Assembly (NCBI RefSeq): GCF_014170335.1
Contig: NZ_LZZS01000035.1
Span: 62,001 to 126,000 of the forward strand
Direction of reading: 5' to 3'
Source of the DNA: Achromobacter sp. UMC46
GTDB lineage: Bacteria > Pseudomonadota > Gammaproteobacteria > Burkholderiales > Burkholderiaceae_B
DNA length: 64,000 nt
Of the stretch, positions 24,190 to 44,718 are shown one piece after another. A model generated the notes under the pieces. That model saw only the letters and a list, made by a program, of their open reading frames with translations. It did no database searches and was not told the DNA's origin. Each line of letters begins with the position of its first letter. Within the stretch, counting starts at the first letter, position 1. A program made the position numbers and the translations under genes.

Positions 24190-24214
24190 AAAATGCCCCC
24201 GAGGGGGCATTTTT
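24190..24214 (+). terminator. intrinsic terminator after the LOG gene
   Basis: AAAATGCCCCC (24190-24200) pairs with GGGGGCATTTT (24203-24213), followed by T. It can serve the converging peptidase gene too, whose stop codon lies at its edge. Confidence 0.75.
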
Positions 24215-25638
24215 CACTTCCGCATGAACGACGGCACGACCTCGGCCGGGATGGGGCACTGGTAAGGCTGGCCGCGGCGCGCGTCCAGCAGTTCCTCTTT
24301 GGCCCGGGACAGCGCCTCGGGGCGCGCGTAAAGATCGGCGGCGGTTGCCGCGATGACCTTGGCGGCATGCACCATGCCCTTGTGCGCCATGGACAGCTTG
24401 CCCTGCGCCACCATCTGCCACGAATGGAATGGCGTGCCATAGGCGTAGCATGCGCCCCAGCATTGCGCCGTGGGCGTCACCCAGCTGACGTCGCCCACAT
24501 CGGTGGACCCGTACGAGATCTCGGTCTTGGCGGGGTCGAAAGGCGCCACGCCGGAGAACAGCGGCGTGGGGTTGCGCAACACCGCGCCCAGGTTCTTGCC
24601 CGCGTTGTCGATGTCGTCTTCGGTGATCGAATCCCACATGCGGCGCGCCGCCTGCTGTTCTCCGGGCGTGTAGGCCGGCCCTTGCAGCGCTTGCATGTTG
24701 GCGTACATCACTTCGTTCAACACGCGGTTCGGCATGTAGTTCGAGCAGGCCTTATCGAACACGATCTCAAGCTCGCAGCCCGTCATCAGCGCCGCGCCGC
24801 GCGCCACGTTCTTCACGCGCTCGTACAGCTCGGACGCCTGCGAATTGACCGGCGCTCGCACCAGGTACAGGACCTCGGCGCGGGCCTGCACCACGTTGGG
24901 CGAAATGCCGCCGCTGTTGGTCACCGCGTAGTGCACGCGCGCGTCGGGCACCATGTGTTCGCGCAGGTAGTTCACGCCCACGTTCATCAGTTCGACCGCG
25001 TCCAGCGCGCTGCGGCCAAGATGCGGCGAATTCGCGGCGTGGGCCGCAATGCCCCGGAAACGGAAATAGGCCTGGATGTTGGCCAGCGACGACTGGTGGA
25101 AAATGCCCGTATGCGAGGCCGGATGCCAGGTCAGGGCCGCATCCACGTCGTCGAACAAGCCGGCGCGCGCCATGAACGTCTTGCCCGACCCGCCCTCTTC
25201 CGCCGGACAGCCATAGAAGCGGATCGTGCCCGGCAGCTGGTTGGCCTCCAGGAATTCCTTGACGGCGACCGCGGCGAAATGCGCCGCCGTGCCCAGCAGG
25301 TGGTGCCCGCAACCGTGGCCGTTGCCATTGGGCGTTTCCGGCGACGGCTGGCAGGCGAACGCGCCGCTCTCCTGGCTCAGGCCGGACAGCGCGTCGTATT
25401 CCCCCAGAATGGCGATGACCGGGCCGCCCTGGCCCGCTTCGGCCACGAAGGCAGTGGGAATGCCGGCGGCGTCCCGCGTGATGCGAAAGCCCGCATCTTC
25501 CAGCATCGCGATGTGCAATTCGGCCGACTTGTGCTCGTCGTAGCGCAGTTCGGCCAGGCTCCAGATGCGGTCGCTCAGGTCCGAGTAACGCTCGCTGTGC
25601 GCGTCGATGAACGGCGCGAGTTTGTCGATGGCACCCAT
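24214..25638 (-). CDS. M20-family amidohydrolase, AbgB-like
   Basis: Metal-dependent aminoacylase/peptidase of 474 residues, close in length and layout to AbgB, the p-aminobenzoyl-glutamate hydrolase subunit. Metal-site motifs are G-H-G-C-G-H-H-L-L-G-T (about 112-122) and the catalytic Glu pair in Y-G-C-P-A-E-E-G-G-S-G-K. A dimerisation domain with A-A-H-A-A-N-S-P-H follows. The ATG at 25638 has GGAG five bases upstream. AbgB normally pairs with AbgA; no AbgA or AbgT gene is adjacent, so this may act alone on another N-acyl amino acid or peptide. A LysR gene and a decayed Bug gene lie upstream. Confidence 0.82.
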   Translation of the reverse strand: MGAIDKLAPFIDAHSERYSDLSDRIWSLAELRYDEHKSAELHIAMLEDAGFRITRDAAGIPTAFVAEAGQGGPVIAILGEYDALSGLSQESGAFACQPSPETPNGNGHGCGHHLLGTAAHFAAVAVKEFLEANQLPGTIRFYGCPAEEGGSGKTFMARAGLFDDVDAALTWHPASHTGIFHQSSLANIQAYFRFRGIAAHAANSPHLGRSALDAVELMNVGVNYLREHMVPDARVHYAVTNSGGISPNVVQARAEVLYLVRAPVNSQASELYERVKNVARGAALMTGCELEIVFDKACSNYMPNRVLNEVMYANMQALQGPAYTPGEQQAARRMWDSITEDDIDNAGKNLGAVLRNPTPLFSGVAPFDPAKTEISYGSTDVGDVSWVTPTAQCWGACYAYGTPFHSWQMVAQGKLSMAHKGMVHAAKVIAATAADLYARPEALSRAKEELLDARRGQPYQCPIPAEVVPSFMRK

Positions 25639-25685
25639 TGCTTCTCCAATGTAAGGGTTGGTCCTGTCCTGTTGAAAAAAACCGG

Positions 25686-25800
25686 TCATTCGTCGAGCTT
25701 GATCCCGGCAGTTTCAATGATTTTCCGATTGGCGGCCAGGTTCAAATGGCCCAGCGACCCGACCCCGGGCGAACCGAAGGAATACTTGCGGCGCTGAAAC
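25686..25800 (-). pseudogene. internally deleted remnant of a Bug/TctC gene
   Basis: The minus strand reads R-K-Y-S-F-G-S-P-G-V-G-S-L-G-H-L-N-L, which matches the middle of Bug solute-binding proteins (the loop after the first lobe). It is followed directly by N-R-K-I-I-E-T-A-G-I-K-L-D-E and a stop, which matches their extreme C-terminus. The intervening 150 or so residues and the whole N-terminus are missing. The fragment begins directly behind the LysR stop codon. It looks like a Bug gene that once followed the regulator and was reduced by two deletions. Confidence 0.6.
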
Positions 25801-25805
25801 GACGA

Positions 25806-26669
25806 TCAACGCATCGTCTTGATGATGGCCTCGCGCGCCAGTCCGATGAACTCGCTTTCACCCGCCCTGGCCGGCAACAGGCGGAATTCCACCTGGGGCA
25901 GCGCCGGCAGGCCGGGCGCGTGCAGGCGCGCGATGCCCGGCGCCAGCGCGGACTCGTTCAGGCAGGCCACGCCCAGGCCTGCCGACAGCGCCAGCTGCAA
26001 ACCCGCCACGCCCGACGCCACATGCGCCACCGCGTAGGGCACGCCGCGGCGCGACAGCAGGCGCTCGACGTACTGCCGCAGGGCGCACGTCTCGGGCAGC
26101 ACCAGCAACGGCAAAGGTTCGCCCAGCCGGGCGTCTTCCCCTTCCGCCGCCATCCATAGCAAGGGCTCGCGGCGCAGCAGATCGCCCTGCACCCGCGCGC
26201 GGGGCGCGCCGCGCTCCTGGATCGACATCGAGATGCCCACGTCGATCTCGCCGCGCTCGTAAGCCGCCTCGATCGCCCCGCTTTTCATGATCGTCACGTG
26301 CAGCCGCACCTGCGGATACTGCTCGTTCAGGCGCCGCAGCATCCGCGCCACATCGCCGGGCCGGAAATAGTCCGTGATGCACAGCCGCAGTTCGCCCCGC
26401 AACGCCACGCCCCGCAGATCGCGGTAGGCCTCGTCGCTCAGCGCCAGGATGGCGCGCGCATGCGCCAGCAGTCGTTCGCCCGCAGGCGTCGCCGTCACGC
26501 CCGACTTGCCGCGCACCAGCAACGGTTGCCCCGCACGGTCTTCCAGTTTGCGCATCTGTTCGCTGACGGACGATTGCGACAGGAACACCTTCGGCGCGGC
26601 TGCGGTCAAGCTACCGGCGTCCAGCACGGCAGCCAGCGTGCGCAACTGGTCCAAGTCAAATCCAGACAT
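25806..26669 (-). CDS. LysR-family transcriptional regulator
   Basis: LysR-type regulator of 287 residues. The helix-turn-helix contains T-A-A-A-P-K-V-F-L-S-Q-S-S-V-S-E-Q-M-R-K-L-E (about 22-43). The effector domain starts near residue 90 (L-R-L-C-I-T-D-Y-F-R-P-G-D). It is divergent from a tautomerase gene with a 106-base gap, the classic LysR/target arrangement. Downstream on its own strand come a Bug remnant and an AbgB-like peptidase gene. The start at 26669 has only a GGAT-type ribosome site. Inducer unknown. Confidence 0.87.
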   Translation of the reverse strand: MSGFDLDQLRTLAAVLDAGSLTAAAPKVFLSQSSVSEQMRKLEDRAGQPLLVRGKSGVTATPAGERLLAHARAILALSDEAYRDLRGVALRGELRLCITDYFRPGDVARMLRRLNEQYPQVRLHVTIMKSGAIEAAYERGEIDVGISMSIQERGAPRARVQGDLLRREPLLWMAAEGEDARLGEPLPLLVLPETCALRQYVERLLSRRGVPYAVAHVASGVAGLQLALSAGLGVACLNESALAPGIARLHAPGLPALPQVEFRLLPARAGESEFIGLAREAIIKTMR

Positions 26670-26673
26670 GGCT

Positions 26674-26698
26674 TATCCAACGGATTAAACGATGGATA
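26674..26698. promoter_or_regulatory. candidate LysR site in the tautomerase divergon
   Basis: ATCC-AAC-GGAT (26675-26685) is a compact inverted repeat, and TATCC/GGATA (26674-26678, 26694-26698) an overlapping wider one. Both lie directly upstream of the LysR start and about 80 bases before the tautomerase start. Role inferred only from position and symmetry. Confidence 0.3.
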
Positions 26699-26775
26699 GA
26701 ATCGTAATTTCCCGCTTTTCCGATGTCAACCAGGCCCTTAGACTGGCTTCACACCTACCCGATCAGGAGCCTCTC

Positions 26776-27174
26776 ATGCCTCACATCGTCGTTCATCTTT
26801 CCGGCACGCCCGATGCCGCCATCAACCGCCGCGTCGTCGATGCCGTGGCTGGCCTGACGCAGTCCGTACTGGGCAAGCAGTTGCCCGTGATCGCGATCAC
26901 GCTGCAACACATCCCGCATGACCTGTGGTTCATCGGCGGCCGTCCGCTGTCGGAACTGGGCAAGAACGCCTTCCACCTGGACATCAGCGTCACGGACGAG
27001 ACCAACACCAAGGCCGAGAAGGCGCGATTCATCAAGGAGATCTACGCGTCGTTCCAGGAAATCCTCGGCGAGCTGCACGCATGCTCGTACGTGCACGTGA
27101 TCGACGCGCGCGCGGCCGCCTATGGCTACGGCGGGGCCACGCAGGAATACCGGCACCAGCAAAGCGGCGTCTAG
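26776..27174 (+). CDS. 4-oxalocrotonate tautomerase family protein
   Basis: Tautomerase-superfamily enzyme of 132 residues. Processing of Met exposes Pro1 in P-H-I-V-V-H-L-S, the catalytic base of the family, so the start at 26776 (GGAG five bases upstream) is well supported. An ATG at 26692 would bury the proline. The length of about 130 suits the fused-repeat members such as malonate-semialdehyde decarboxylase or cis-CaaD relatives, not the 62-residue 4-OT. W-F-I-G-G-R near residue 54 is typical. Divergent LysR control is likely. Substrate unknown. Confidence 0.83.
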   Translation: MPHIVVHLSGTPDAAINRRVVDAVAGLTQSVLGKQLPVIAITLQHIPHDLWFIGGRPLSELGKNAFHLDISVTDETNTKAEKARFIKEIYASFQEILGELHACSYVHVIDARAAAYGYGGATQEYRHQQSGV

Positions 27175-27225: not shown

Positions 27226-28035
27226 TCAGTCCGAACGCCGGCCGAACAGGCCGGCGACGCCATACTTGATCCGCGACCACAGCGCCTTCAGGCCGATGCT
27301 GAGCATGTTCAGCTCAGCCGCTTTCGGCGCAGGCCGTGCTGGGCGCCCTCTAGCCTCAATGATTTTGGTTTGCGCCAGCGCCAGGATGGCCTGTGCCTGG
27401 CACAGCACGGCTTGCGCCTGCTGCAGCACCGCCTGCGCGTCGGCTGAGCCCGCCACGCCTGCGCCCAGGCTGGCAGGCCCCAAGGCGGGTGCTCCGGCGC
27501 TTGGCGCGGGCGCACCCGCTGCGCTGGCAAGGGAAGTCTCCGCAGCGGGATAAGCCGGCCTCCCCTCCTCCGGATGCGCTTCATCATCCAGCAACCGGCC
27601 GAGGTTTTGTTCAAACTGTCCCAGAATCTGAGACGCCACTTCCGCGATCATTCCGCTGCCTCGGCCATACTGGGCCACCGAACCGGACAACACGAGCTGG
27701 GTGACCACGGTGACATCGGTGCCACCCGCCGCGGCCGGGGTCAGCGCAAAGCTGAATTCGGATTGTGCCGCGCCGCGGCCTTTAGGATCCAATCCCGAAC
27801 CTTGCAGCCAGGCGATGTGCGCATCCTCGTCCGTCCGCACCAATTCGGCCTGTCCATCAAAGGCCAGCTTGATCGGCCCGAGCCGGACTGACACGGAACC
27901 TCTGTACTTGTTATTGCCAAGCACTTCGGTCAGACGGGCGCCTGGCAGGCAGGGCAAGATGCGAGGCACATCCAGCATCAGCTTCCACGCCTCGTCCATT
28001 GGCAGGGGCACATGAAATTTGTTCGTGAATTCCAT
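27226..28035 (-). CDS. coxG: CoxG-like protein (SRPBCC fold)
   Basis: Carbon-monoxide-dehydrogenase subunit G family protein, 269 residues. The SRPBCC domain (about 1-150) starts M-E-F-T-N-K-F-H-V-P-L-P and contains L-P-C-L-P-G-A. A roughly 70-residue Ala/Gln-rich linker with heptad-like A-Q-A-V-L-Q-Q-A-Q-A-V-L repeats follows, then a short basic amphipathic tail. CoxG proteins are thought to assist membrane attachment or maturation of the hydroxylase. Its ATG overlaps the stop of the large-subunit gene (TAATG), so it is translationally coupled and last in the operon. Confidence 0.83.
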   Translation of the reverse strand: MEFTNKFHVPLPMDEAWKLMLDVPRILPCLPGARLTEVLGNNKYRGSVSVRLGPIKLAFDGQAELVRTDEDAHIAWLQGSGLDPKGRGAAQSEFSFALTPAAAGGTDVTVVTQLVLSGSVAQYGRGSGMIAEVASQILGQFEQNLGRLLDDEAHPEEGRPAYPAAETSLASAAGAPAPSAGAPALGPASLGAGVAGSADAQAVLQQAQAVLCQAQAILALAQTKIIEARGRPARPAPKAAELNMLSIGLKALWSRIKYGVAGLFGRRSD

Positions 28036-30434
28036 TACTTTTCCTCGGGGGATGGGCAAACGCCTAGGGGCGCGCCCGAAGCGCGGTCTATCAATTCCAG
28101 CAGGCGGACCGGGCTTAGCGGAAACTCCGCCAATCGCACGCCGATGTCCGATAAGGCATGTTCGACGGCGCCGATGACGGCGGCTGCCACCGGCACGGTG
28201 GCGCATTCGCCAATGCCCTTGACCCCAAGGGGGTTGAGCGTCGTCGGCGAAGGTTGGAAGAACACGTCGATATGCGGCACCTCCGGCGCGGTCGGAAGCA
28301 AGTACTCCGCAAAGGTCGTCGTGATGGGTTGGCCGCCGGCGTCGTACCCCATCCATTCGAACAAGGCATTGCCGATGCCGTGAACGACGCCGCCATGCAC
28401 CTGCCCGTGCGCGAGCATCGGATTGATGATGCGGCCGCTGTCTTGCACGGCGACGTATCGGACAATGCGGATTTCACCGGTCAGCGGGTCGACCTCGACC
28501 TCGCAGGCATGGGAGGCGCCGGCGTAGGCCTGAGCGTCGCAATGGAAATGCACGGTCTCATCCAGGCCGGGGTCTCCTGCCTGAGGCAGCGCGTAGCCCG
28601 GCACGCCCTTCCAAAGCATCGCCAGGCGCGCCAAGGAAAGGGAGGCGTTGTCCGGGCCGCGCAACTCGCCGTTGGCAAGCGTGAGCGAGTCAGGCTCCAC
28701 GTTCAACAGCGCGGCGGCACTATTGATGATCTTGATGCGCAACTTGGCCGCCGCCTGTTCAACGGCCGAGCCGGCCATGATGGCCTGGCGGCTGGCGAAG
28801 CCGCCCATGCCATAGTTGATGAACGATGTGTCGCCCGCCTGCACGTGCACCGCCTCGGCTTGCACACCGAAATGGGCCGCACAGATCTGCGCCAAGGTCG
28901 TTTTGATGCCTTGGCCCATGGCCAGCGCGCCGGTGTAGATGGTGATTTGGCCCGAGGGAAGCACGCGCACGCGGGCAGACTCGAACGGGCCGCGCCCTGT
29001 GGGCTTGACGCTGTTGGCCACGGCGATGCCTCGGGACAATCCGCGCGTGGCCGCTTCTGCACGCCGGGCGTCAAAACCCTCGTAATCGATTTCGAGCAAC
29101 GCTCGCGCCTGCAAGGCGGGAAAGTCGCCGCTGTCGATGGTGAGCGGCACGCCGGCGCGGGACTTCAACGGCTTGGTGTAGGGGATTTCCTCTGGCGGGA
29201 TGAAGTTGCGGCGGCGGCATTCGGCGCGGTCGATGCCAAGCTCGACCGCGATGCGGTCGATCATTCGTTCCATCACGAACGCCGCCTGCGGATAACCCGC
29301 GCCGCGCACGGTCGCCACCGGCACCTTGTTGGTGTAGACCACGCGGACGTCCAACTGATAGGCCGGAATGCGATACGGGCCCGACAAGGACGAAGCAGAG
29401 TTGTAGGGCACGTTAGTGCCCTGTGGCGTGTAGGCCCCATGATCATGCACCATGTCGCCGCGCACCGCCAGGATATGGCCATCGGCATCAACGGCACATT
29501 GGACAGACCAGTATTGGTCGCGCTCCTGGATGGATGTCAGGAAGTTCTCGCGTCGGTCTTCCAGCCACTTCACCGGCCGCCCCAGCATGCGGGCGGCAGC
29601 AGGGATTGCGATTTCTTCCGGATAGATCATGAACTTCGCGCCGAAGCCGCCACCGACGTCGGGCGTGATGACGCGCAACTGGTCTTCGGGCTGCCCGAGC
29701 ATCAACGCAATGGTGTAGTGCAGCTCATGCGCCATCTGGGTCGAAGACCAGACAGTAAGGGTGCCCGATGCCGGGTCAGGCATGGCCAGGACGCCTCTGC
29801 CCTCCATCGGATGGGCCGCGCCCCGATGGGTCCAGAAGCGCTCGCTGAACACGCGATGCGCGCCGGCGAACACCGTATCGCAATCGCCATAGCTCAAGGT
29901 GTAGCGTTGCAGGACGTTGGATTCGAGCTCGCTGCGAACCCGTGGAGACGCCTCGTCGAACGCTTCGCGGCAGTCGGACACCGCCTCCAGCAGTTCGTAT
30001 TCGATGGCGACCATGGCCGCGGCGTCTTCCGCCAAATGGCGGCTTTGCGCCACGACCAGCACGATGGCTTCGCCAACGAACGCGACTTCATCGGCCGCCA
30101 GGACAAACGGCGTGGTGTTGGCCGGCAAGGCAGCCAGCGCGAAGCCCAGCGGCATGCGCCATTCCGTCAATTGGCCATAGAAATCAGCGTAGGCGTATAC
30201 CGCGACCACGCCGGGCATCGCGCGCGCCGGCTCCAGGTCGATGGAGAGGATTCGCGCATGGGCGTGCGGGCTGCGCACGAAGCAGGAGTGCAACGGGGCG
30301 GTGACGGGAATGTCGTCCAGGAATCCGGCATTGCCCGTAAGCAGCGCCGCATCCTCGACGCGCAGCACCGATGCGCCCACTCCTGTGGAGGGTGTCGCGT
30401 CCCCGATGACATTGGCGTGCATCGGCGCTTTCAT
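28035..30434 (-). CDS. molybdenum hydroxylase large subunit (CoxL-like, form II-like)
   Basis: Molybdopterin-binding subunit of a xanthine-dehydrogenase-family enzyme, 799 residues. It has the small Ald_Xan_dh domain (about 20-130) and the Mo-cofactor domain with V-G-G-G-F-G-A-K, P-T-G-R-G-P-F-E-S and the C-terminal G-V-K-G-I-G-E. At about residues 375-385 the active-site loop reads T-V-R-G-A-G-Y-P-Q-A-A. True CO dehydrogenases have A-Y-x-C-S-F-R there, and form II proteins A-Y-R-G-A-G-R. This enzyme therefore lacks the catalytic Cys and is probably an organic-substrate hydroxylase. The start overlaps the small-subunit stop by ATGA. Confidence 0.87.
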   Translation of the reverse strand: MKAPMHANVIGDATPSTGVGASVLRVEDAALLTGNAGFLDDIPVTAPLHSCFVRSPHAHARILSIDLEPARAMPGVVAVYAYADFYGQLTEWRMPLGFALAALPANTTPFVLAADEVAFVGEAIVLVVAQSRHLAEDAAAMVAIEYELLEAVSDCREAFDEASPRVRSELESNVLQRYTLSYGDCDTVFAGAHRVFSERFWTHRGAAHPMEGRGVLAMPDPASGTLTVWSSTQMAHELHYTIALMLGQPEDQLRVITPDVGGGFGAKFMIYPEEIAIPAAARMLGRPVKWLEDRRENFLTSIQERDQYWSVQCAVDADGHILAVRGDMVHDHGAYTPQGTNVPYNSASSLSGPYRIPAYQLDVRVVYTNKVPVATVRGAGYPQAAFVMERMIDRIAVELGIDRAECRRRNFIPPEEIPYTKPLKSRAGVPLTIDSGDFPALQARALLEIDYEGFDARRAEAATRGLSRGIAVANSVKPTGRGPFESARVRVLPSGQITIYTGALAMGQGIKTTLAQICAAHFGVQAEAVHVQAGDTSFINYGMGGFASRQAIMAGSAVEQAAAKLRIKIINSAAALLNVEPDSLTLANGELRGPDNASLSLARLAMLWKGVPGYALPQAGDPGLDETVHFHCDAQAYAGASHACEVEVDPLTGEIRIVRYVAVQDSGRIINPMLAHGQVHGGVVHGIGNALFEWMGYDAGGQPITTTFAEYLLPTAPEVPHIDVFFQPSPTTLNPLGVKGIGECATVPVAAAVIGAVEHALSDIGVRLAEFPLSPVRLLELIDRASGAPLGVCPSPEEK

Positions 30435-30937
30435 GCAGCTTGTCTCGCACGTAGCAGGACGGCCGCGCGTCGCACGGCGCTGACAATATTCTGGTAGCCG
30501 GTGCAGCGGCATAGGTGGCCAGACAAGACGTCGCGGATTTCGGCCTCGGAGGGATCGGGATGATGGGTCAACATTTCAGCTACGGACATCAGAATCCCGG
30601 GCGTGCAATAGCCGCACTGCAATCCGTGAAGCTCGTGAAAAGCTTGCTGGATGGGATGCAGCGTGCCGTCCGCCTCGGCCAGGCCCTCAACCGTTTGAAC
30701 CTCGCTGCCTTCGGCCTGCACAGCCAGCATCAGGCAACCGCGCGTGCTGCAGCCGTCGACCAGCACGGTACAGGCGCCGCAAACGCCGTGCTCGCAGCCT
30801 ACGTGCGTACCCGTCAACCTCAGCTCGCCACGCAGAAAGTCCGCCAGGTTGACGCGCGGTTCGGCCGTGCCTTCGTAAGACTTTCCGTTGACATGCAGCC
30901 TGATCGGCCGTGCCTGGGATGCTTGCCCGTTGTTCAT
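30431..30937 (-). CDS. molybdenum hydroxylase [2Fe-2S] small subunit (CoxS-like)
   Basis: Iron-sulfur subunit of 168 residues. A plant-type ferredoxin domain has C-E-H-G-V-C-G-A-C at about 48-56 plus a fourth cysteine. A helical domain has C-G-Y-C and C-R-C-T-G-Y. Together these hold the two [2Fe-2S] clusters that pass electrons from the Mo site to FAD. It overlaps both neighbours by four bases (ATGA), indicating a tightly coupled M-S-L order as in cox operons. Confidence 0.92.
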   Translation of the reverse strand: MNNGQASQARPIRLHVNGKSYEGTAEPRVNLADFLRGELRLTGTHVGCEHGVCGACTVLVDGCSTRGCLMLAVQAEGSEVQTVEGLAEADGTLHPIQQAFHELHGLQCGYCTPGILMSVAEMLTHHPDPSEAEIRDVLSGHLCRCTGYQNIVSAVRRAAVLLRARQAA

Positions 30938-31815
30938 TCCTGCCTCGCAGTATGGTTGTGAGCCCGTTCGATTGCCAGCGCCAGCGCACGCTGCGCCAGC
31001 ACGCCAGCCAGGCGCTGGCGGTACCAGGACGGAACATAGCTGTCGCCGACGGCGTCAATCGCGGCGCATAGGCGCGCCGCGTGGGCAAGATCAGCAGCCT
31101 CGCCACGGCTACCCAGCAAGACCGCCTCCGCCTCGTGCATGCGCAAGGGCGCAGACGCCACGCCGCCCAATGTCAGCGACACCCGCTGCAAGCGACCATC
31201 GTCAGCAAATAAAACGAGCGCCGCCGCGGAAACAATGGCGAAGTCCCCGTGCCTGCGTGCGAATTCAATGAAGGCGTGTCCATGCGCGGCGGGCCAGGGC
31301 TCGACACGGATGGCGATCAGCATTTCATCGGGATCCATGGCGGGGGTCATGTATCCAGCGGGAAAATCGGCCATCTTTACGCTGCGGGTGCCGCGCACCC
31401 CGGCTACCGTGAGGACCGCATCCATCGCCAGAGCCACGGTCGGAATTTCGGCCGACGGATCCAACTGACACAGGCTGCCGCCCACGGTGCCGCGATTGCG
31501 GGTCTGCCGATGACCGACATTCAGTATCGCTTCATGCCACAGCGGCAGGCGCGTCTGCACCAGTTCCGAGAACTCAACGCCGCGCTGGCGAGTCATGGCG
31601 CCGATCTCGATGCCCTGCTCGCCGTCGCGCAAGTATGACAACGCCCCGATGCGATTGACATCGATGAGGCAGTCCGGAAAGGCGAAGCGCATATTGAGCA
31701 TCGCCATCAGGGACTGGCCGCCCGCAAGAATGCGGGCGTTGTCCACTTGGCTGAGCATTTGCAGCGCCTCGTTGAGCGTGGCGGGCGCGTGATACTGCAG
31801 CACGGGTGCTTTCAT
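30934..31815 (-). CDS. molybdenum hydroxylase FAD subunit (CoxM-like)
   Basis: FAD-binding subunit of 293 residues. Flavin motifs are A-G-G-Q-S-L at about 31-36 and T-x-G-G-S-type T-V-G-G-S-L-C-Q-L-D-P-S-A-E near 114. The C-terminal CO_deh_flav_C domain follows. It completes the three-subunit hydroxylase with the small and large subunits downstream and overlaps the small-subunit start. The binding-protein-like gene upstream ends 3 bases after this start, on the same strand, so all are one transcript. Confidence 0.9.
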   Translation of the reverse strand: MKAPVLQYHAPATLNEALQMLSQVDNARILAGGQSLMAMLNMRFAFPDCLIDVNRIGALSYLRDGEQGIEIGAMTRQRGVEFSELVQTRLPLWHEAILNVGHRQTRNRGTVGGSLCQLDPSAEIPTVALAMDAVLTVAGVRGTRSVKMADFPAGYMTPAMDPDEMLIAIRVEPWPAAHGHAFIEFARRHGDFAIVSAAALVLFADDGRLQRVSLTLGGVASAPLRMHEAEAVLLGSRGEAADLAHAARLCAAIDAVGDSYVPSWYRQRLAGVLAQRALALAIERAHNHTARQE

Positions 31816-31821
31816 ATGCCG

Positions 31822-32817
31822 TCAGATCTTGGACAAATCCAGCGCCGACGCCGCGAACAGCTCTTCGGGCTTGACCTGGCGCTTGGACAGGCCTTGCTCG
31901 AAGTGATAGCGCGCAAAGGTCTCGATCGTGTGCCGGTTGGCTTCCAGCCCGAACGGCCAGAAGTCATCGCCCATCAGGGCGCGCGTGTCGTTCAAGTGGT
32001 GAACCATCCAGGGCAAGGTGACTGCCAAATGGCAAATCTCGTTCAACTCATGGGTGGCCAGCGCCTTGGCTTTAATGAAGGCCTTGTAGACACTGACGGG
32101 CAGCCATGGGTTTTCCTTCACCAGAGACTTGCGGATGCCCACCATGTGCATGATCGGGAAAATGCCGGTGCGACGGTAATAGTCCTTCTCGGCCTCGATG
32201 TAGTTGTCACCGAACAGGCGCCCGACGTTGGGGGCGCCGCGCAGGAAGCACGACGGCGCGCGGGCGCCGATATAGCCGTCGATTTCGCCCGATGCGAGCA
32301 TGTCGGACAGCGTCCGGTCATCGGGAATCTGCTTGAGGTCAATTTCCGGATCCAGTTCGATCGGCGCGCGCTCGCCGCGGCCCGGCTCTTCGATGCCGCC
32401 TCGCACCCATTTGATATCGCGGGGCTTGACGCCATATTCGTCCTCTAGAATGCCCCGAATCCAGACATTGGCCGTGATCTGGTATTCAGGCACGCCAATG
32501 GTCTTGCCCCGCAGATCTTGCGGCGTCTTGATGCCCCTGTCCGTCCGGACATAAATGCCCGATTGACGGAACACGCGTGAAATGAATGCGGGAATGGCAA
32601 CGTATTCGTTGTCGCCGCGAGCGGTCGTCATCATGTGACTGCTCATCGAAATCTCGGTGACGTCGAACTCGTGATAGCGGAATGCGCGGTGAAATGCCTC
32701 TTCCGGCTCCAGGGGCACCGCGGTCACTTCGCAACCCTCGATCGGCGCACGGCCGTCGAACAGGGCTTGGGTACGGTCATAGTTTCCGCAGGACAGGCTG
32801 ATACGCAATTTGCTCAT
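31822..32817 (-). CDS. 4,5-dihydroxyphthalate decarboxylase-like / NMT1-type protein
   Basis: Protein of 331 residues in the periplasmic-binding-protein-like fold, of the group often named 4,5-dihydroxyphthalate decarboxylase (Pht5-like). Its N-terminus is L-R-I-S-L-S-C-G-N-Y-D-R-T, with F-D-V-T-E-I-S-M-S-S, and R-G-K-T-I-G-V-P-E-Y-Q near 105. It has no signal peptide, unlike true transporter binding proteins, which fits a cytoplasmic enzyme or sensor. It sits between a Bug gene and the hydroxylase FAD-subunit gene in one operon. A decarboxylase acting before or after hydroxylation of an aromatic acid would fit, but the reaction is inferred. Confidence 0.72.
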   Translation of the reverse strand: MSKLRISLSCGNYDRTQALFDGRAPIEGCEVTAVPLEPEEAFHRAFRYHEFDVTEISMSSHMMTTARGDNEYVAIPAFISRVFRQSGIYVRTDRGIKTPQDLRGKTIGVPEYQITANVWIRGILEDEYGVKPRDIKWVRGGIEEPGRGERAPIELDPEIDLKQIPDDRTLSDMLASGEIDGYIGARAPSCFLRGAPNVGRLFGDNYIEAEKDYYRRTGIFPIMHMVGIRKSLVKENPWLPVSVYKAFIKAKALATHELNEICHLAVTLPWMVHHLNDTRALMGDDFWPFGLEANRHTIETFARYHFEQGLSKRQVKPEELFAASALDLSKI

Positions 32818-32833
32818 GAGGTGATGCTCCTGG

Positions 32834-33820
32834 TTAATCTACCGAAAGACTGATCTTGTGGGCCAGCGCCGAGAATCGGTCGATGTCGTCGTTGACCATG
32901 GTCTGGAAGGCGGCCGGGCCATCGCTGGCCGTGATGTAGCCCAAGTCGGCCAGTTTTTTCTGAATGTCGTCGCGCTTCATGATCTGCGCCACACCTTCGT
33001 AGATTTTGTTTTTGATGGCTATAGGTGTTCCCGCTGATGTCAGGAAGCCATGCCACTGATTCAATTCATAGCCCGGATAGCCTTGTTCGGCGATGGTCGG
33101 AATGTCCGGCATCAGGGCCGAGCGTTCCTTGGCCGTCAAGCCCAGCGCACGCAGCTTGCCGGCCTTGATGAAAGGCATGGCGCTGGAAGCGGTAATGATT
33201 GCCAGCCCCACCTGCCCTCCCGCCACGTCATTCAAGGCCGGGCCGCAACCTTTGTATGGCACGTGCGTCATGTGGACATTGGCCTGCAAGTTCAGCATTT
33301 CACCGGCGAGATGCTGCGGTGTGCCGTTGCCACAGGAACCGAACGACACCAAATTCTTCCCCGGCTTTGCCGCGCTGATCACGTCGGACAGGTTCCGGTA
33401 AGGCGAGTCGGGCGGAACCACAAAGACTGACGGCACGTAGGCAATATTGATGATCGCCTCGAAGTCTTTCTTGGGGTCAAACGGCAGAGTTTTGAACACG
33501 CCCGGGTTAATCGCAAACGAGCTGTTCACCATCAGCAGCGAATAGCCGTCCGGCGCCCTTTCCGCGATGATGCGCGCGCCGACGTTGCCGCTGGCCCCCG
33601 GCCGGTTCTCCACCACCGCACCCTTGCCCAGGGTTTCCGTCATGTAATTGCCGATCAGCCGGGCCAGCAGGTCGGTTCCGCCGCCAGGCGGGAATGTGAC
33701 GATGACGTTGATGGGTTTGCTTGGAAAGGCGGACGCGTCCTCCGCCCAGGTGGCGCTTGACGCGCTGATGCTGCAGGCGGCCACTAGGGCCGCCTGGACG
33801 ATGCGACTACGACGTTTCAT
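32834..33820 (-). CDS. Bug/TctC-family periplasmic solute-binding protein
   Basis: Second intact Bug protein, 328 residues, with a signal peptide (cleavage likely after A-T-W-A, residue 26) and mature start F-P-S-K-P-I-N-V-I-V-T-F-P-P-G-G-G-T-D. The ATG at 33820 has AGGGGA four bases upstream; an earlier in-frame ATG would add an unfamiliar 37-residue N-terminus. It is the first gene of the hydroxylase operon, so it probably captures that pathway's substrate, most likely an aromatic or other carboxylate. TctA/TctB partners are not adjacent. Confidence 0.88.
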   Translation of the reverse strand: MKRRSRIVQAALVAACSISASSATWAEDASAFPSKPINVIVTFPPGGGTDLLARLIGNYMTETLGKGAVVENRPGASGNVGARIIAERAPDGYSLLMVNSSFAINPGVFKTLPFDPKKDFEAIINIAYVPSVFVVPPDSPYRNLSDVISAAKPGKNLVSFGSCGNGTPQHLAGEMLNLQANVHMTHVPYKGCGPALNDVAGGQVGLAIITASSAMPFIKAGKLRALGLTAKERSALMPDIPTIAEQGYPGYELNQWHGFLTSAGTPIAIKNKIYEGVAQIMKRDDIQKKLADLGYITASDGPAAFQTMVNDDIDRFSALAHKISLSVD

Positions 33821-34061
33821 GTATTCCCCTTGTGCCGTGGCGTGAGCGCCTTTTGCCGGCTGTTGAATGAAGCGCGATCGGATCCAGACTCTGCTCAGTA
33901 CGCTGAGCAAATTAATCATAGTGCTGATCAATTTAGCGATGCCATCGGGGTAAATACTGAGCGCAAGGGGATGGGGGAACGAGCGTCATCGCGCGACCAT
34001 GCGCTGCACGGGCGGACCTGCTGGAGAAGCCGGCCCGCGAACAATCGACAATCTGCGGCCC
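33821..34061. other. intergenic region with operator-like palindromes
   Basis: No gene is visible here. It should hold the promoter of the minus-strand Bug/hydroxylase operon. TGCTCAG (33892-33898) and CTGAGCA (33903-33909) form a perfect 7-base inverted repeat around TACG. The half-site CTGAGC recurs near 33957, and a related TGCTGATCA lies near 33922. Such spaced half-sites suggest an operator, but no regulator gene adjoins it. Confidence 0.45.
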
Positions 34062-34097
34062 AAAAAAAATAACCCCATGTCGGAACATGGGGTTATT
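34062..34097 (-). terminator. intrinsic terminator after typA
   Basis: AATAACCCCATGT (34068-34080) pairs perfectly with ACATGGGGTTATT (34085-34097). On the minus strand the 3' arm runs into eight T. It lies about 85 bases past the typA stop; a G6/C6 hairpin lies between them near 34158. Confidence 0.88.
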
Positions 34098-34183
34098 CGG
34101 CAATCTGAAGCCGCACACCCGAAGGTGCGCGGCATCTTGCGTGTACGACTGAAACGCGAGGGGGGCGTACCCCCCCGGTCCAC

Positions 34184-42864: not shown

Positions 42865-44718
42865 TTAACGGCCCTGACGGCCACGCCCGCCCATCACGCC
42901 AAGGCGCGATTCGTGGGCCGACGCGCCACGCGGCTGCCAATCATCGCCACGGGGCGAGGACGACGACGAAGACGAGGCGCTGCGCGGGGCGCGCGGCTTA
43001 CCGCCTGCACCCGACCCCTTGTTGTTGCCGGCGCCGCCTCCCGCCGCGCGCGGCGAGCCTTCGGCCTTGTTGCCGCCACGACCGGAACCTGCCGGCTTGC
43101 CGCCGCGGCTGTTGCCGCCGCCCGCGCCGGCCGGCTTGCCGCCACCCGGTTTACGACCGGAAGGCTTGCGGCCGCCACCACCCACGGGCACCTCGGCCAC
43201 ATTGCCGACGGCATCCGCCGAAGCCACGGGGCTCGACGGGCCGTTGGCCGCCGCCGAACGCGGACCGCGGGGCTTGCCGCCCGGCTTACCACCCGGCTTG
43301 CCGCCCTGCTTTCCCCCTGGCCGGCCGCCGCCAGCCGGCGCCGCCGAACGGCCGCCGCCGGGCTTGCCGCCCTTGCGGTTGCCGCCTGCGCCTTCGGCCG
43401 CCAGCGGATGGCCGTTGGCATAGCCGCCGGCAATCATCAGGCCAGTGCCAAACGGATCCGACGGACATGCGGCCGTTTGGCCGGCACTGCCCAGACGGCC
43501 GCCCTGCAGCTTGCCGCGACGGCCGATACGGGCGCCGTTCATGCCATTGCGGTCCATCGTGCCGAAGCCCGGGGGCAGCGCGCTGTCATGCGATTGCGGC
43601 TGTTTCGAGCGGCGGCGATTGCCACCAGATTCGTCGTCTTCGCGCAACAGTCCCAATTGGACCATCAGCGCGGTAACCAGCGAACCATCCAGTTCTTCCC
43701 AGCGGCCGCGCCGCAGCGTGCGCGGCAGCACCACGTCGCCGAAACGGGTGCGGATCAGGCGGCTGACCGTGACGCCGACGGCTTCGAACATGCGGCGGAC
43801 TTCGCGGTTGCGGCCTTCCTGCAAGGTCACGCGATACCAGCGGTTGCTGCCGTCGCCACCCAGGTAATCCAACGCGCCGAAAGCAGCCAGGCCATCCTCC
43901 AGCTCAATGCCGTCGACCAGCGACTGGCGTTGCGCCTCGTCCATTTCACCCAGCACGCGGACCGCGTACTCGCGCTCGGTACCGTAGCGGGGGTGCATGA
44001 TGCGGTTGGCCATGTCGCCCGAGGTCGTGAAAATCAGCAGACCTTCGGTATTCAAATCCAGGCGGCCCACCGACAGCCACTTGCCGGTGCGCAGCTTGGG
44101 CAAGCGCGCGAAGACGCTGGCACGACCACCCGGATCGTCATGGCTGACGATTTCACCCGCCGGCTTGTGATACAGGATCACGCGCGGCGGCCTCTTCGTG
44201 TTCGTGCGCATGATGGGCTTGCCGTTGACGCGGACCTGATCGTTCGGCGCCACGCGCTGGCCGATATGGGCCGGCTCGCCATTGACCGACACTCGGCCGG
44301 CGACGATCAGCTCTTCCATTTCGCGGCGCGAACCGATACCGGCGTCAGCCAGCACCTTATGCAGCTTCGGCATGACCGAATCGCTGTTCAGGTACTTGCC
44401 CAGGCGCTGCTCCATGCGGTCAGCGGAGTCCAGGTACGACAGGGCCTGTTCGGCCTCCTGCTCGCCGCCACGGGAGTCAGGCGACTCGACCGGAGCAGCG
44501 GCCGCTGCGGGCTGCTGGCCTTCAGCGGCCGGCGCCTGTTCGGCCGTCGCGTCGCCGCGGCGGCGGCGGAACGGCGTCCTCAGCTTGCGCCCGCGCCCAC
44601 GGGCGCCGGCCTCGCCTTCGGCTGCCGGCTCGCGCGCGGCGGAAGCTTCCGATTGACCGTTGGAAACGGTGTCATCCGAACGGGGATTGTCGTCCTGCAT
44701 TGCTGTATTCGTTGTCAC
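42865..44718 (-). CDS. rluB: 23S rRNA pseudouridine(2605) synthase with long basic tail
   Basis: RsuA/RluB-type enzyme modifying U2605 of 23S rRNA. Of 617 residues, the S4 domain lies at about 115-165 ([14 protein letters not shown]). The catalytic domain at about 180-350 has [11 protein letters not shown] with the active Asp, and [11 protein letters not shown]. About 250 C-terminal residues are low-complexity Gly/Lys/Pro/Ala/Ser/Arg, including G-G-K-P-G-G repeats, and an acidic/Ala-rich N-terminus precedes S4. GTG at 44718 was chosen for GGAG eight bases upstream; an ATG at 44700 is possible. It overlaps the end of scpB? No: scpB ends 17 bases upstream. Confidence 0.9.

What the first reader, a model, noticed from the sequence alone, without database searches (positions are those of the whole stretch)
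27226..33820. Six-gene operon: Bug protein, dihydroxyphthalate-decarboxylase-like protein and a CoxMSL/G-type hydroxylase
Tight overlaps (ATGA, TAATG) join the hydroxylase genes. The large subunit has T-V-R-G-A-G-Y where CO dehydrogenase has A-Y-x-C-S-F-R, so it cannot be a classical CO oxidiser, and the loop also deviates from form II at two places. With a carboxylate binding protein and a decarboxylase-like protein, it could be an uptake and hydroxylation route for an aromatic or heterocyclic acid. I know of no described pathway with this exact set.
Basis: partly seen in the sequence, partly recalled or inferred. Interest (0 to 1): 0.65.

Follow-up and report, generated by a model that had tools for sequence, protein, structure and literature searches.

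The report
Quinolinate-degradation operon feeding picolinate pathway
This six-gene operon most likely lets the bacterium take up and eat quinolinic acid (an NAD precursor and neurotoxin) by adding a hydroxyl group and then removing one carboxyl group, which would give genes to enzymes purified in 2003.

Summary
In detail: Bug–decarboxylase–coxM–coxS–coxL–coxG, minus strand, 27226–33820, with ATGA, ATGA and TAATG junctions. The hydroxylase is no CO dehydrogenase; its loop is T[VI]RGAGY in 22 of 22 operon-clade rows.

The substrate can be named. (1) The Bug protein is 71% identical to Bordetella Bug27, which binds quinolinate at 136 nM; pocket residues are identical. (2) The decarboxylase forms its own clade beside 4,5-dihydroxyphthalate decarboxylases, the group that a purified Alcaligenes 6-hydroxyquinolinate decarboxylase is said to resemble. 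(3) Picolinate (pic) genes flank the operon in 15 of 19 orthologous loci against 0 of 23 other decarboxylase loci; PicC is in 6 of 6 operon genomes against 23 of 150 overall. (4) The leader carries TCAG-N4-CTGA, the operator I recall for the repressor PicR, also present at pic promoters.

Inferred route: quinolinate → 6-hydroxyquinolinate → 6-hydroxypicolinate → PicB, PicC onward. The reactions were described in 2003. My searches of an open-access library, whose listings were partly capped and which lacks most subscription journals, showed no gene assignment. Nothing was tested at the bench. Main gaps: 13 of 23 operon receptors differ in the pocket, and one draft genome has the decarboxylase but no PicC hit.

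The parts
34067..34098 (-). intrinsic-terminator-like hairpin after upstream typA; boundary of the operon
   Evidence: 14-pair stem, 4-nt loop, T-run (sequence)
33895..33906 (.). TCAGCGTACTGA palindrome (TCAG-N4-CTGA), candidate PicR operator, about 75 bp before the Bug start codon
   Evidence: one of 2 such sites in the 64-kb window, 0.62 expected. Same motif in 17 of 24 operon leaders. PicR motif recalled, paper not held
32834..33820 (-). Bug/TctC periplasmic receptor of the Bug27 group, predicted quinolinate receptor
   Evidence: PF03401; best PDB hit Bug27 2QPQ, 509.6 bits against 205.6 for the next; 71% identity and 10 of 10 checked pocket positions identical, three of the ten placed by my reading of the paper's numbering
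31822..32817 (-). PBP-fold decarboxylase of the 4,5-dihydroxyphthalate-decarboxylase family, predicted 6-hydroxyquinolinate decarboxylase
   Evidence: 9JP7: E 1.3e-103; model TM 0.94, 49% identity; own clade, support 100/99; translation starts MSKLRISLSCGNYDR, no signal-peptide-like start by eye
30934..31815 (-). CoxM-type FAD subunit of the molybdenum hydroxylase
   Evidence: PF00941, PF03450; ATGA overlap with CoxS
30431..30937 (-). CoxS-type 2x[2Fe-2S] subunit
   Evidence: PF01799, PF00111; ATGA overlap with CoxL
28035..30434 (-). CoxL-type molybdenum subunit, predicted quinolinate 6-hydroxylase (dehydrogenase)
   Evidence: PF02738, PF20256, PF01315; operon clade of 22 rows, support 100/100
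29292..29312 (-). active-site loop TVRGAGY, residues 375-381
28206..28208 (-). conserved Glu743 in KG[IV]GE, the catalytic glutamate of the family by recall
27226..28035 (-). CoxG-like protein, predicted membrane/quinone anchor of the hydroxylase
   Evidence: PF06240 37.9 bits, cut-off 22.2; best PDB hit CoxG 8UDS, E 7.7e-23

Best explanation
A quinolinate upper-pathway operon that plugs into the picolinate (pic) pathway. The Bug receptor captures quinolinate in the periplasm; no membrane partner is in the operon. The CoxMSL enzyme hydroxylates it at C6 with water as oxygen donor and passes the electrons on, probably with CoxG holding it at the membrane. The PBP-fold decarboxylase then removes the 3-carboxylate, which is para to the new 6-hydroxyl as in 4,5-dihydroxyphthalate, giving 6-hydroxypicolinate. 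The genome's own PicB, PicC, PicD, PicE, PicF and PicG then take this to fumarate. PicR, a MarR repressor (recalled as relieved by 6-hydroxypicolinate), probably controls the operon. Shown here: gene order, families, clades, linkage, pocket residues, the palindrome. Inferred: every catalytic step, the binding, the regulation and the electron route.
For: (a) Receptor: 71% identity to Bug27, which binds quinolinate at 136 nM; of the compounds screened at 1 mM, picolinate among them, only quinolinate gave a significant thermal shift (PMC11452294). 10 of 10 checked pocket positions are identical in the window protein; four control Bugs keep 0 to 2 of 10. That paper's network lists Achromobacter pestifer in the Bug27 cluster; A. 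pestifer carries this operon (L109). (b) Decarboxylase: PMC6644310 (passages) reports a UK21 enzyme converting 6-hydroxyquinolinate to 6-hydroxypicolinate, no cofactor reported, with some similarity to phthalate decarboxylases. (c) Linkage: pic genes at 60% identity or more in the fetched flank in 15 of 19 orthologous loci (13 of 19 counting enzyme genes only) against 0 of 23 other family loci; L130 set aside. In L111-L114 and L117 the genes run CoxG-PicB reductase-PicB alpha-PicB beta-PicC-PicG or PicE; L116 runs to PicC. In G077 picR-C-G-E-D-F lies directly upstream. (d) Co-occurrence: PicC in 6 of 6 genomes that hold both close CoxL and decarboxylase, against 23 of 150; hypergeometric P 7e-6, relatedness ignored. 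PicB alpha at 79% or more in these 6 of 6. The nic-type second dioxygenase is in only 3 of 6, which favours 6-hydroxypicolinate over 6-hydroxynicotinate as product. (e) TCAG-N4-CTGA in 17 of 24 leaders; 0.045 per kb outside leaders; in the 1450 bp before the decarboxylase 14 of 19 operon loci against 0 of 22 controls; also at the window genome's own picT/picB and picC upstream regions. (f) The window genome holds the pic genes on C18 and nic genes on C15.
Against: No activity or binding measured. The UK21 sequence could not be compared (paper not held). In the window genome the operon is not beside the pic genes. Of 23 operon receptors aligned (the A. pestifer one twice), 8 keep all ten pocket positions, 2 keep nine, and 13 (Pigmentiphaga type, Polaromonas, Comamonadaceae, Ramlibacter; 50-55% identity to Bug27) change three to five, Thr22, Gln142 and Asn227 among them. 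By fluorescence, Bug27's affinity for quinolinate was only about three times that for nicotinate, nicotinamide or citrate (PMC11452294). G141, an 84%-complete MAG, has the decarboxylase at 78% and a Bug on a cut contig, but no PicC at E 1e-120, no PicB alpha above 47% and no close CoxL; counting it, PicC is in 6 of 7. G007 has no adjacent Bug, no operator, and dioxygenase genes of another type upstream. L125 keeps the decarboxylase and picB but no coxMSLG. L109, L110, L122 and L124 show no pic gene at 60% in view. Seven of 24 leaders lack the perfect palindrome by the strict rule; in L114 a site lies just beyond the misjudged start. Several control loci lie on short contigs. The PicR motif and its ligand are recalled, not read.
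Confidence: 0.88

Rival explanations
1. A second route for another pyridine acid of the pic network (picolinate itself, 3-hydroxypicolinate, or another dicarboxylate), with the decarboxylase acting on a different hydroxylated pyridine.
For: pic linkage alone fixes the pathway, not the first substrate. The receptor pocket differs in 13 of 23 operon receptors aligned.
Against: The window genome has another CoxMSL set inside its pic cluster, the place of PicA, only 31-33% identical to this CoxL in the four PicA-type rows. L119, L120 and L126 carry both. A decarboxylase fixed in the operon implies an extra carboxyl group. Bug27 showed no significant shift with picolinate (PMC11452294).
Confidence: 0.1
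2. Phthalate or benzenoid dicarboxylate route: a true 4,5-dihydroxyphthalate decarboxylase with an unusual hydroxylase.
For: 49% identity and TM 0.94 to the Comamonas 4,5-dihydroxyphthalate decarboxylase 9JP7.
Against: Two plasmid clusters (L153, L154) hold a Rieske or phthalate dioxygenase, a reductase and a Gfo/Idh-type or dihydroxyphthalate dehydrogenase beside the decarboxylase; none was seen among the window ORFs at 22-40 kb. The phthalate-type sequences, 9JP7 included, form a separate clade, support 100/100, and 29 positions differ between the groups.
Confidence: 0.02
3. Aerobic CO dehydrogenase (form I) or an uncharacterised form II CoxL with a CO-related role.
For: CoxMSL plus CoxG gene set; the best NCBIfam model by E-value is an aerobic CODH group.
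Against: CODH models are far below cut-off (718.7 against 950; 476.1 against 991); loop TVRGAGY lacks Cys; linkage is to pyridine genes.
Confidence: 0.005

Closest known systems
[quoted passage not shown] UK21 (Uchida et al. 2003; title seen, summary, paper not held)
   Same: same two predicted reactions; genus of the same family (Alcaligenaceae); decarboxylase said to resemble phthalate decarboxylases, no cofactor reported
   Different: known as enzymes; I found no gene. Sequence identity could not be tested
pic cluster of Alcaligenes faecalis JQ135 and Bordetella bronchiseptica RB50 (PMC10142695)
   Same: would share all steps after 6-hydroxypicolinate; RB50-like order C-G-E beside the operon in G077; same palindrome at promoters
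   Different: PicA starts from picolinate and no decarboxylase precedes PicB; PicA-type large subunits are only 31-33% identical
Bug27/Bug69 quinolinate binders (PMC11452294)
   Same: 71% identity to Bug27, identical checked pocket residues in the window protein
   Different: the authors link them to NAD metabolism; here the receptor sits in a catabolic operon
4,5-dihydroxyphthalate decarboxylase (Pht5; PDB 9JP7)
   Same: fold, about 49% identity, shared conserved polar core
   Different: separate clade, 29 positions differ, no phthalate genes around
Form II CoxL / xanthine-oxidase-family hydroxylases such as 6-hydroxypseudooxynicotine dehydrogenase (7DQX) and quinoline 2-oxidoreductase (1T3Q)
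   Same: same domains; matched over nearly the whole length
   Different: own clade with the T[VI]RGAGY loop

Membership tests
Xanthine-oxidase-family molybdenum hydroxylase | FAD, 2x[2Fe-2S] and MoCo-binding subunits | tested here: met
   PF00941/PF03450, PF00111/PF01799, PF01315/PF02738/PF20256
Xanthine-oxidase-family molybdenum hydroxylase | conserved catalytic Glu near the C-terminus (role recalled) | tested here: met
   KG[IV]GE in 22 of 22 operon-clade rows
Aerobic CO dehydrogenase, form I | (A/S)YRCS(F/L)R loop | tested here: not met
   TVRGAGY; motif definition in PMC13240472
Aerobic CO dehydrogenase, form I | score over the curated CODH cut-off | tested here: not met
   TIGR02416 476.1 against 991.15; NF040766 718.7 against 950
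4,5-dihydroxyphthalate decarboxylase | same fold and sequence family | tested here: met
   9JP7 TM 0.94, 49% identity
4,5-dihydroxyphthalate decarboxylase | belongs to the clade of phthalate-cluster enzymes | tested here: not met
   own clade 100/99; phthalate-type clade 100/100
6-hydroxyquinolinate decarboxylase (UK21) | turnover of 6-hydroxyquinolinate without cofactor | not testable with these tools
   needs an assay; UK21 paper and sequence not available here
Bug27/Bug69 quinolinate receptor | pocket residues named in PMC11452294 | tested here: met
   10 of 10 checked positions identical in the window protein. The paper's Phe12, 'Asn74' and Asn228 do not fit the printed chain and were read as F16, N72 and N227; the other seven match by number
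Bug27/Bug69 quinolinate receptor | submicromolar quinolinate binding | not testable with these tools
   needs a binding assay
PicR regulon | TCAG-N4-CTNN operator (recalled) | tested here: met
   window 33895-33906; perfect palindrome in 17 of 24 leaders
PicR regulon | PicR binding and relief by 6-hydroxypicolinate | not testable with these tools
   needs EMSA or reporter; PicR paper not held

The most novel reading that the evidence does not exclude
The pairing of a CoxMSL hydroxylase with a PBP-fold decarboxylase is a recurring module for N-heteroaromatic dicarboxylates. This operon would be its quinolinate member, giving genes to an orphan 2003 pathway and a catabolic role to the Bug27 receptor group. 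The relative in G087 (decarboxylase 65%, CoxM/S/L 50-63% identical, no pic genes seen by eye in the stretch read) would serve another ring acid.
Probability: 0.35. Interest if true: 0.6.

Novelty: new member of a known kind. Interest (0 to 1): 0.52.

Why it matters
It would supply genes for two enzymes characterised in 2003, and so make quinolinate use predictable from genomes. It would give a catabolic role to a receptor group so far linked to NAD metabolism, and show how a small operon plugs a new substrate into an existing pathway under a shared repressor. It also bears on the fold of 4,5-dihydroxyphthalate-type decarboxylases: 9JP7 and the model here have a binding-protein fold, whereas a 2019 review left open whether they are UbiD enzymes (PMC6644310). 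The enzymes are candidates for making 6-hydroxypicolinate and for removing quinolinate.

Tried and rejected
CO oxidation: rejected on loop and model scores. Phthalate: rejected on clade and context; the window genome has only one decarboxylase of this family at E 1e-60, this one. Nicotinate branch: the nic-type dioxygenase is in only 3 of 6 operon genomes, so 6-hydroxynicotinate as product is less likely. The NMT1 and phosphonate-binding hits of the decarboxylase (the second is below its cut-off) suggest a transport protein; rejected because the translation opens straight into the fold with no signal-like start by eye and the nearest structure is an enzyme. A scan of viral contigs confirmed no relative of CoxL. 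In plasmids every best place was under 60% identity (186 records for CoxL, 67 for the decarboxylase); the best listed were 45.2% (40 of 186 rows seen) and 52.9% (30 of 67 rows seen).

Literature. Ten paper searches ran: seven on quinolinate or picolinate breakdown, two on the decarboxylase, one on CoxG (46). None of the listings showed a gene assignment for quinolinate breakdown, but several were capped (one search listed 20 of 904, 15 of 29, 12 of 25, 15 of 21); some searches listed all their hits. The library lacks most subscription journals. Zhao et al. 2022 on quinolinate breakdown by A. faecalis JQ191 was seen only as a reference and may already name genes.

The TCAG-N4-CTGA core is not specific alone: 0.62 expected in the window, 2 found, and 11 of 100 shuffles gave at least 2. 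Its weight comes from recurrence in leaders; the loci are related, so the binomial P of 6e-21 for 15 of 22 leaders overstates it. The control set of 22 left out L130 and L132.

Full report
Observation. Six minus-strand genes lie between 33820 and 27226. CoxM/CoxS and CoxS/CoxL overlap by ATGA, CoxL/CoxG by TAATG. A terminator-like hairpin at 34098–34067 follows the upstream typA gene. CoxL carries TVRGAGY at residues 375–381 and a conserved KGIGE.

What the enzyme is not. Form I CO dehydrogenases carry (A/S)YRCS(F/L)R; [quoted passage not shown] The window protein has neither, and scores far below the curated CODH cut-offs. In a 42-row tree the operon CoxL sequences form one clade of 22 rows, support 100/100 (L019 and L109 are the same assembly). 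All 22 share T[VI]RGAGY, preceded by A in 21 and S in one. The four PicA-type rows are 31–33% identical.

Conservation of the set. Among 150 relatives (the window genome included), six genomes hold both the close CoxL, at 68% or more, and the decarboxylase, at 81% or more: G000, G023, G087, G007, G043 and G077. The six-gene order is complete in five of these; G007 lacks the adjacent Bug and has an MFS/sugar-type transporter there instead. A seventh genome, the 84%-complete MAG G141, has the decarboxylase at 78% and a Bug on a 4.6-kb contig, without a close CoxL found. A scan of one genome per species with the decarboxylase alignment returned 43 loci, 19 of them at 76% or more. Of these 19, 16 carry the full six-gene order, two are cut by contig ends (L121, L122), and one (L125, Burkholderia sp.) has the decarboxylase without Bug and coxMSLG. 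Hosts include Achromobacter, Pigmentiphaga, Alcaligenes, Polaromonas and Ramlibacter.

Linkage to picolinate genes. In G077 the operon directly follows a MarR gene and picC-G-E-D-F, with picG between picC and picE as reported for B. bronchiseptica RB50 (PMC10142695, parts 1 and 2 of 4 read, and passages). Identity of PicC was checked by eye against the primers printed there: MTKVRKI at the start, AARLFKL at the end and the stretch around His163 (DVPLYL-PFDAYV) agree with the G077 protein. The other Pic names rest on order, family and similarity; PicA and PicB were named from their place beside these genes in the window genome and their families. Of the 19 orthologous loci, 15 hold a pic gene at 60% identity or more in the fetched flank; two of these (L118, L127) hold only picR. 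L109, L110, L122 and L124 do not (L124 has a 50% PicR match). None of 23 more distant decarboxylase loci does; some of these lie on contigs of only 4.6–11 kb, and L130 was set aside because it shares a contig with L123 (Fisher P 4e-8, and 1e-6 on enzyme genes only, relatedness ignored). In L111–L114 and L117 the order runs on as CoxG–PicB reductase–PicB alpha–PicB beta–PicC–PicG or PicE, the order of the proposed reactions. L119, L120 and L126 carry both a PicA set and this operon.

Co-occurrence. PicC at E 1e-120 or better is in 23 of 150 relatives and in 6 of 6 genomes with close CoxL and decarboxylase (P 7e-6 if genomes were independent). Counting G141, which has no such PicC and no PicB alpha above 47%, it is 6 of 7. 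The PicB Rieske alpha subunit is in the 6 of 6 at 79–100%. A second, nic-type dioxygenase is in only 3 of 6. The window genome holds picA, B, C, D, E, F, G and R matches on contig C18 and nic genes on C15 (the PicA and PicB queries were themselves taken from C18). Its three MoCoBD_1 hits are this CoxL, the PicA subunit in the pic cluster, and one beside the nic genes.

Receptor. The Bug protein's best solved relative is B. pertussis Bug27 (2QPQ), 509.6 bits against 205.6 for the next, 71% identity. Sorci et al. 2024 (PMC11452294, parts 1–3 of 5 read, and passages) measured quinolinate binding of 136 nM for Bug27 and 70 nM for Bug69. Of the compounds screened at 1 mM, picolinate among them, only quinolinate gave a significant thermal shift; by fluorescence, however, the affinity was only about three times that for nicotinate, nicotinamide and citrate. 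They list Achromobacter pestifer and Alcaligenes faecalis in the Bug27 cluster. Ten pocket positions were checked and all are identical in the window protein; the paper's Phe12, 'Asn74' and Asn228 did not fit the printed chain and were read as F16, N72 and N227. Of 23 operon receptors aligned (the A. pestifer one twice), 8 keep all ten, 2 keep nine and 13 change three to five; four control Bugs keep 0 to 2. So the receptor argument is strong for the window and the Achromobacter and Alcaligenes operons, and weaker for the others.

Decarboxylase. An AlphaFold2 model (mean pLDDT 93.6) matches C. testosteroni 4,5-dihydroxyphthalate decarboxylase 9JP7 at TM 0.94 and 49% identity; the next matches are binding proteins and related enzymes at TM about 0.5. 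In a 76-row tree the operon sequences form a clade of 25 rows (100/99), apart from a clade of 15 rows (100/100) that holds 9JP7 and the enzymes of two plasmid phthalate-type clusters. Twenty-nine positions differ between the groups (one residue in at least 95% of 24 against another in at least 85% of 15), while a core of conserved polar residues is shared. A review (PMC6644310, passages) states that a UK21 enzyme converts 6-hydroxyquinolinate to 6-hydroxypicolinate, with no cofactor reported and some similarity to phthalate decarboxylases. The chemistry fits: the 3-carboxylate of 6-hydroxyquinolinate is para to the hydroxyl, as in 4,5-dihydroxyphthalate (general knowledge).

CoxG. The best solved relative is a CoxG (8UDS). 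CoxG proteins anchor enzymes to membranes, and this was proposed for 3-hydroxypyridine dehydrogenase (PMC11962113, passages); there the authors argue against a part in electron transfer, whereas PMC13240472 cites a quinone-binding role that delivers electrons. The electron route here is inferred.

Regulation. I recall, without having been able to read it, that PicR binds TCAG-N4-CTNN and is relieved by 6-hydroxypicolinate; the title and reference were seen. The window leader holds TCAGCGTACTGA at 33895–33906. A perfect TCAG-N4-CTGA is in 17 of 24 operon leaders. In the 22 fetched loci counted together, 15 leaders have a site, while the rate outside leaders is 0.045 per kb. In the 1450 bp before the decarboxylase gene, 14 of 19 operon loci have one against 0 of 22 control loci (L130 and L132 not included). 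In the window genome the motif lies twice between the picT-like and picB genes and three times in the region upstream of picC. Misses are L120, L121, L122, L123, L126, L021 and, by the strict rule, L114, whose site lies just beyond the misjudged start.

Conclusion. Four largely independent lines (receptor, decarboxylase family, pic linkage, shared palindrome) point to quinolinate → 6-hydroxyquinolinate → 6-hydroxypicolinate. Every catalytic and regulatory step remains an inference until assayed. The reactions are known; the gene set appears unassigned in the literature I could search, which is a limited basis for a novelty claim.

Noticed in passing
window 24214-27174: Downstream of the operon: a tautomerase-like gene (26692-27174 +, weak TIGR00013 match below cut-off), a LysR regulator (25806-26669 -) and an M20 amidohydrolase (24214-25689 -). 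In G023 (L019) an extra Bug gene lies between LysR and M20. Role in the operon unknown.
   Followed up: partly
L100 3460-3960: A small protein resembling tautomerases by eye also lies upstream of the Bug-decarboxylase pair in the MAG G141, so a tautomerase may recur near this operon.
   Followed up: no
L026 6350-11172 (G087): A relative of the operon: decarboxylase 65% and CoxM/S/L 50-63% identical, next to aldehyde-dehydrogenase-like, esterase-like and ABC-transporter-like genes (by eye), no pic genes seen; substrate likely another ring acid.
   Followed up: partly
L130 10001-10978 with L123: A second, diverged decarboxylase (55%) lies on the same contig as the operon, close to picB and pic genes.
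   Followed up: no
L125 3954-10993: Burkholderia sp. 4M9327F10 keeps the decarboxylase and picB with the palindrome but no coxMSLG; transposase-like genes (by eye) lie around it, so it may be a decayed or rearranged copy.
   Followed up: partly
L021 757-6279 (G007): In G007 the Bug gene is absent and an MFS/sugar-type transporter stands before the decarboxylase, behind Rieske dioxygenase, reductase-like and hydrolase-like genes of another aromatic pathway.
   Followed up: partly
window 43755-43766: The only other TCAG-N4-CTGA in the window lies in GC-rich sequence (74% in the flanks); probably chance.
   Followed up: partly
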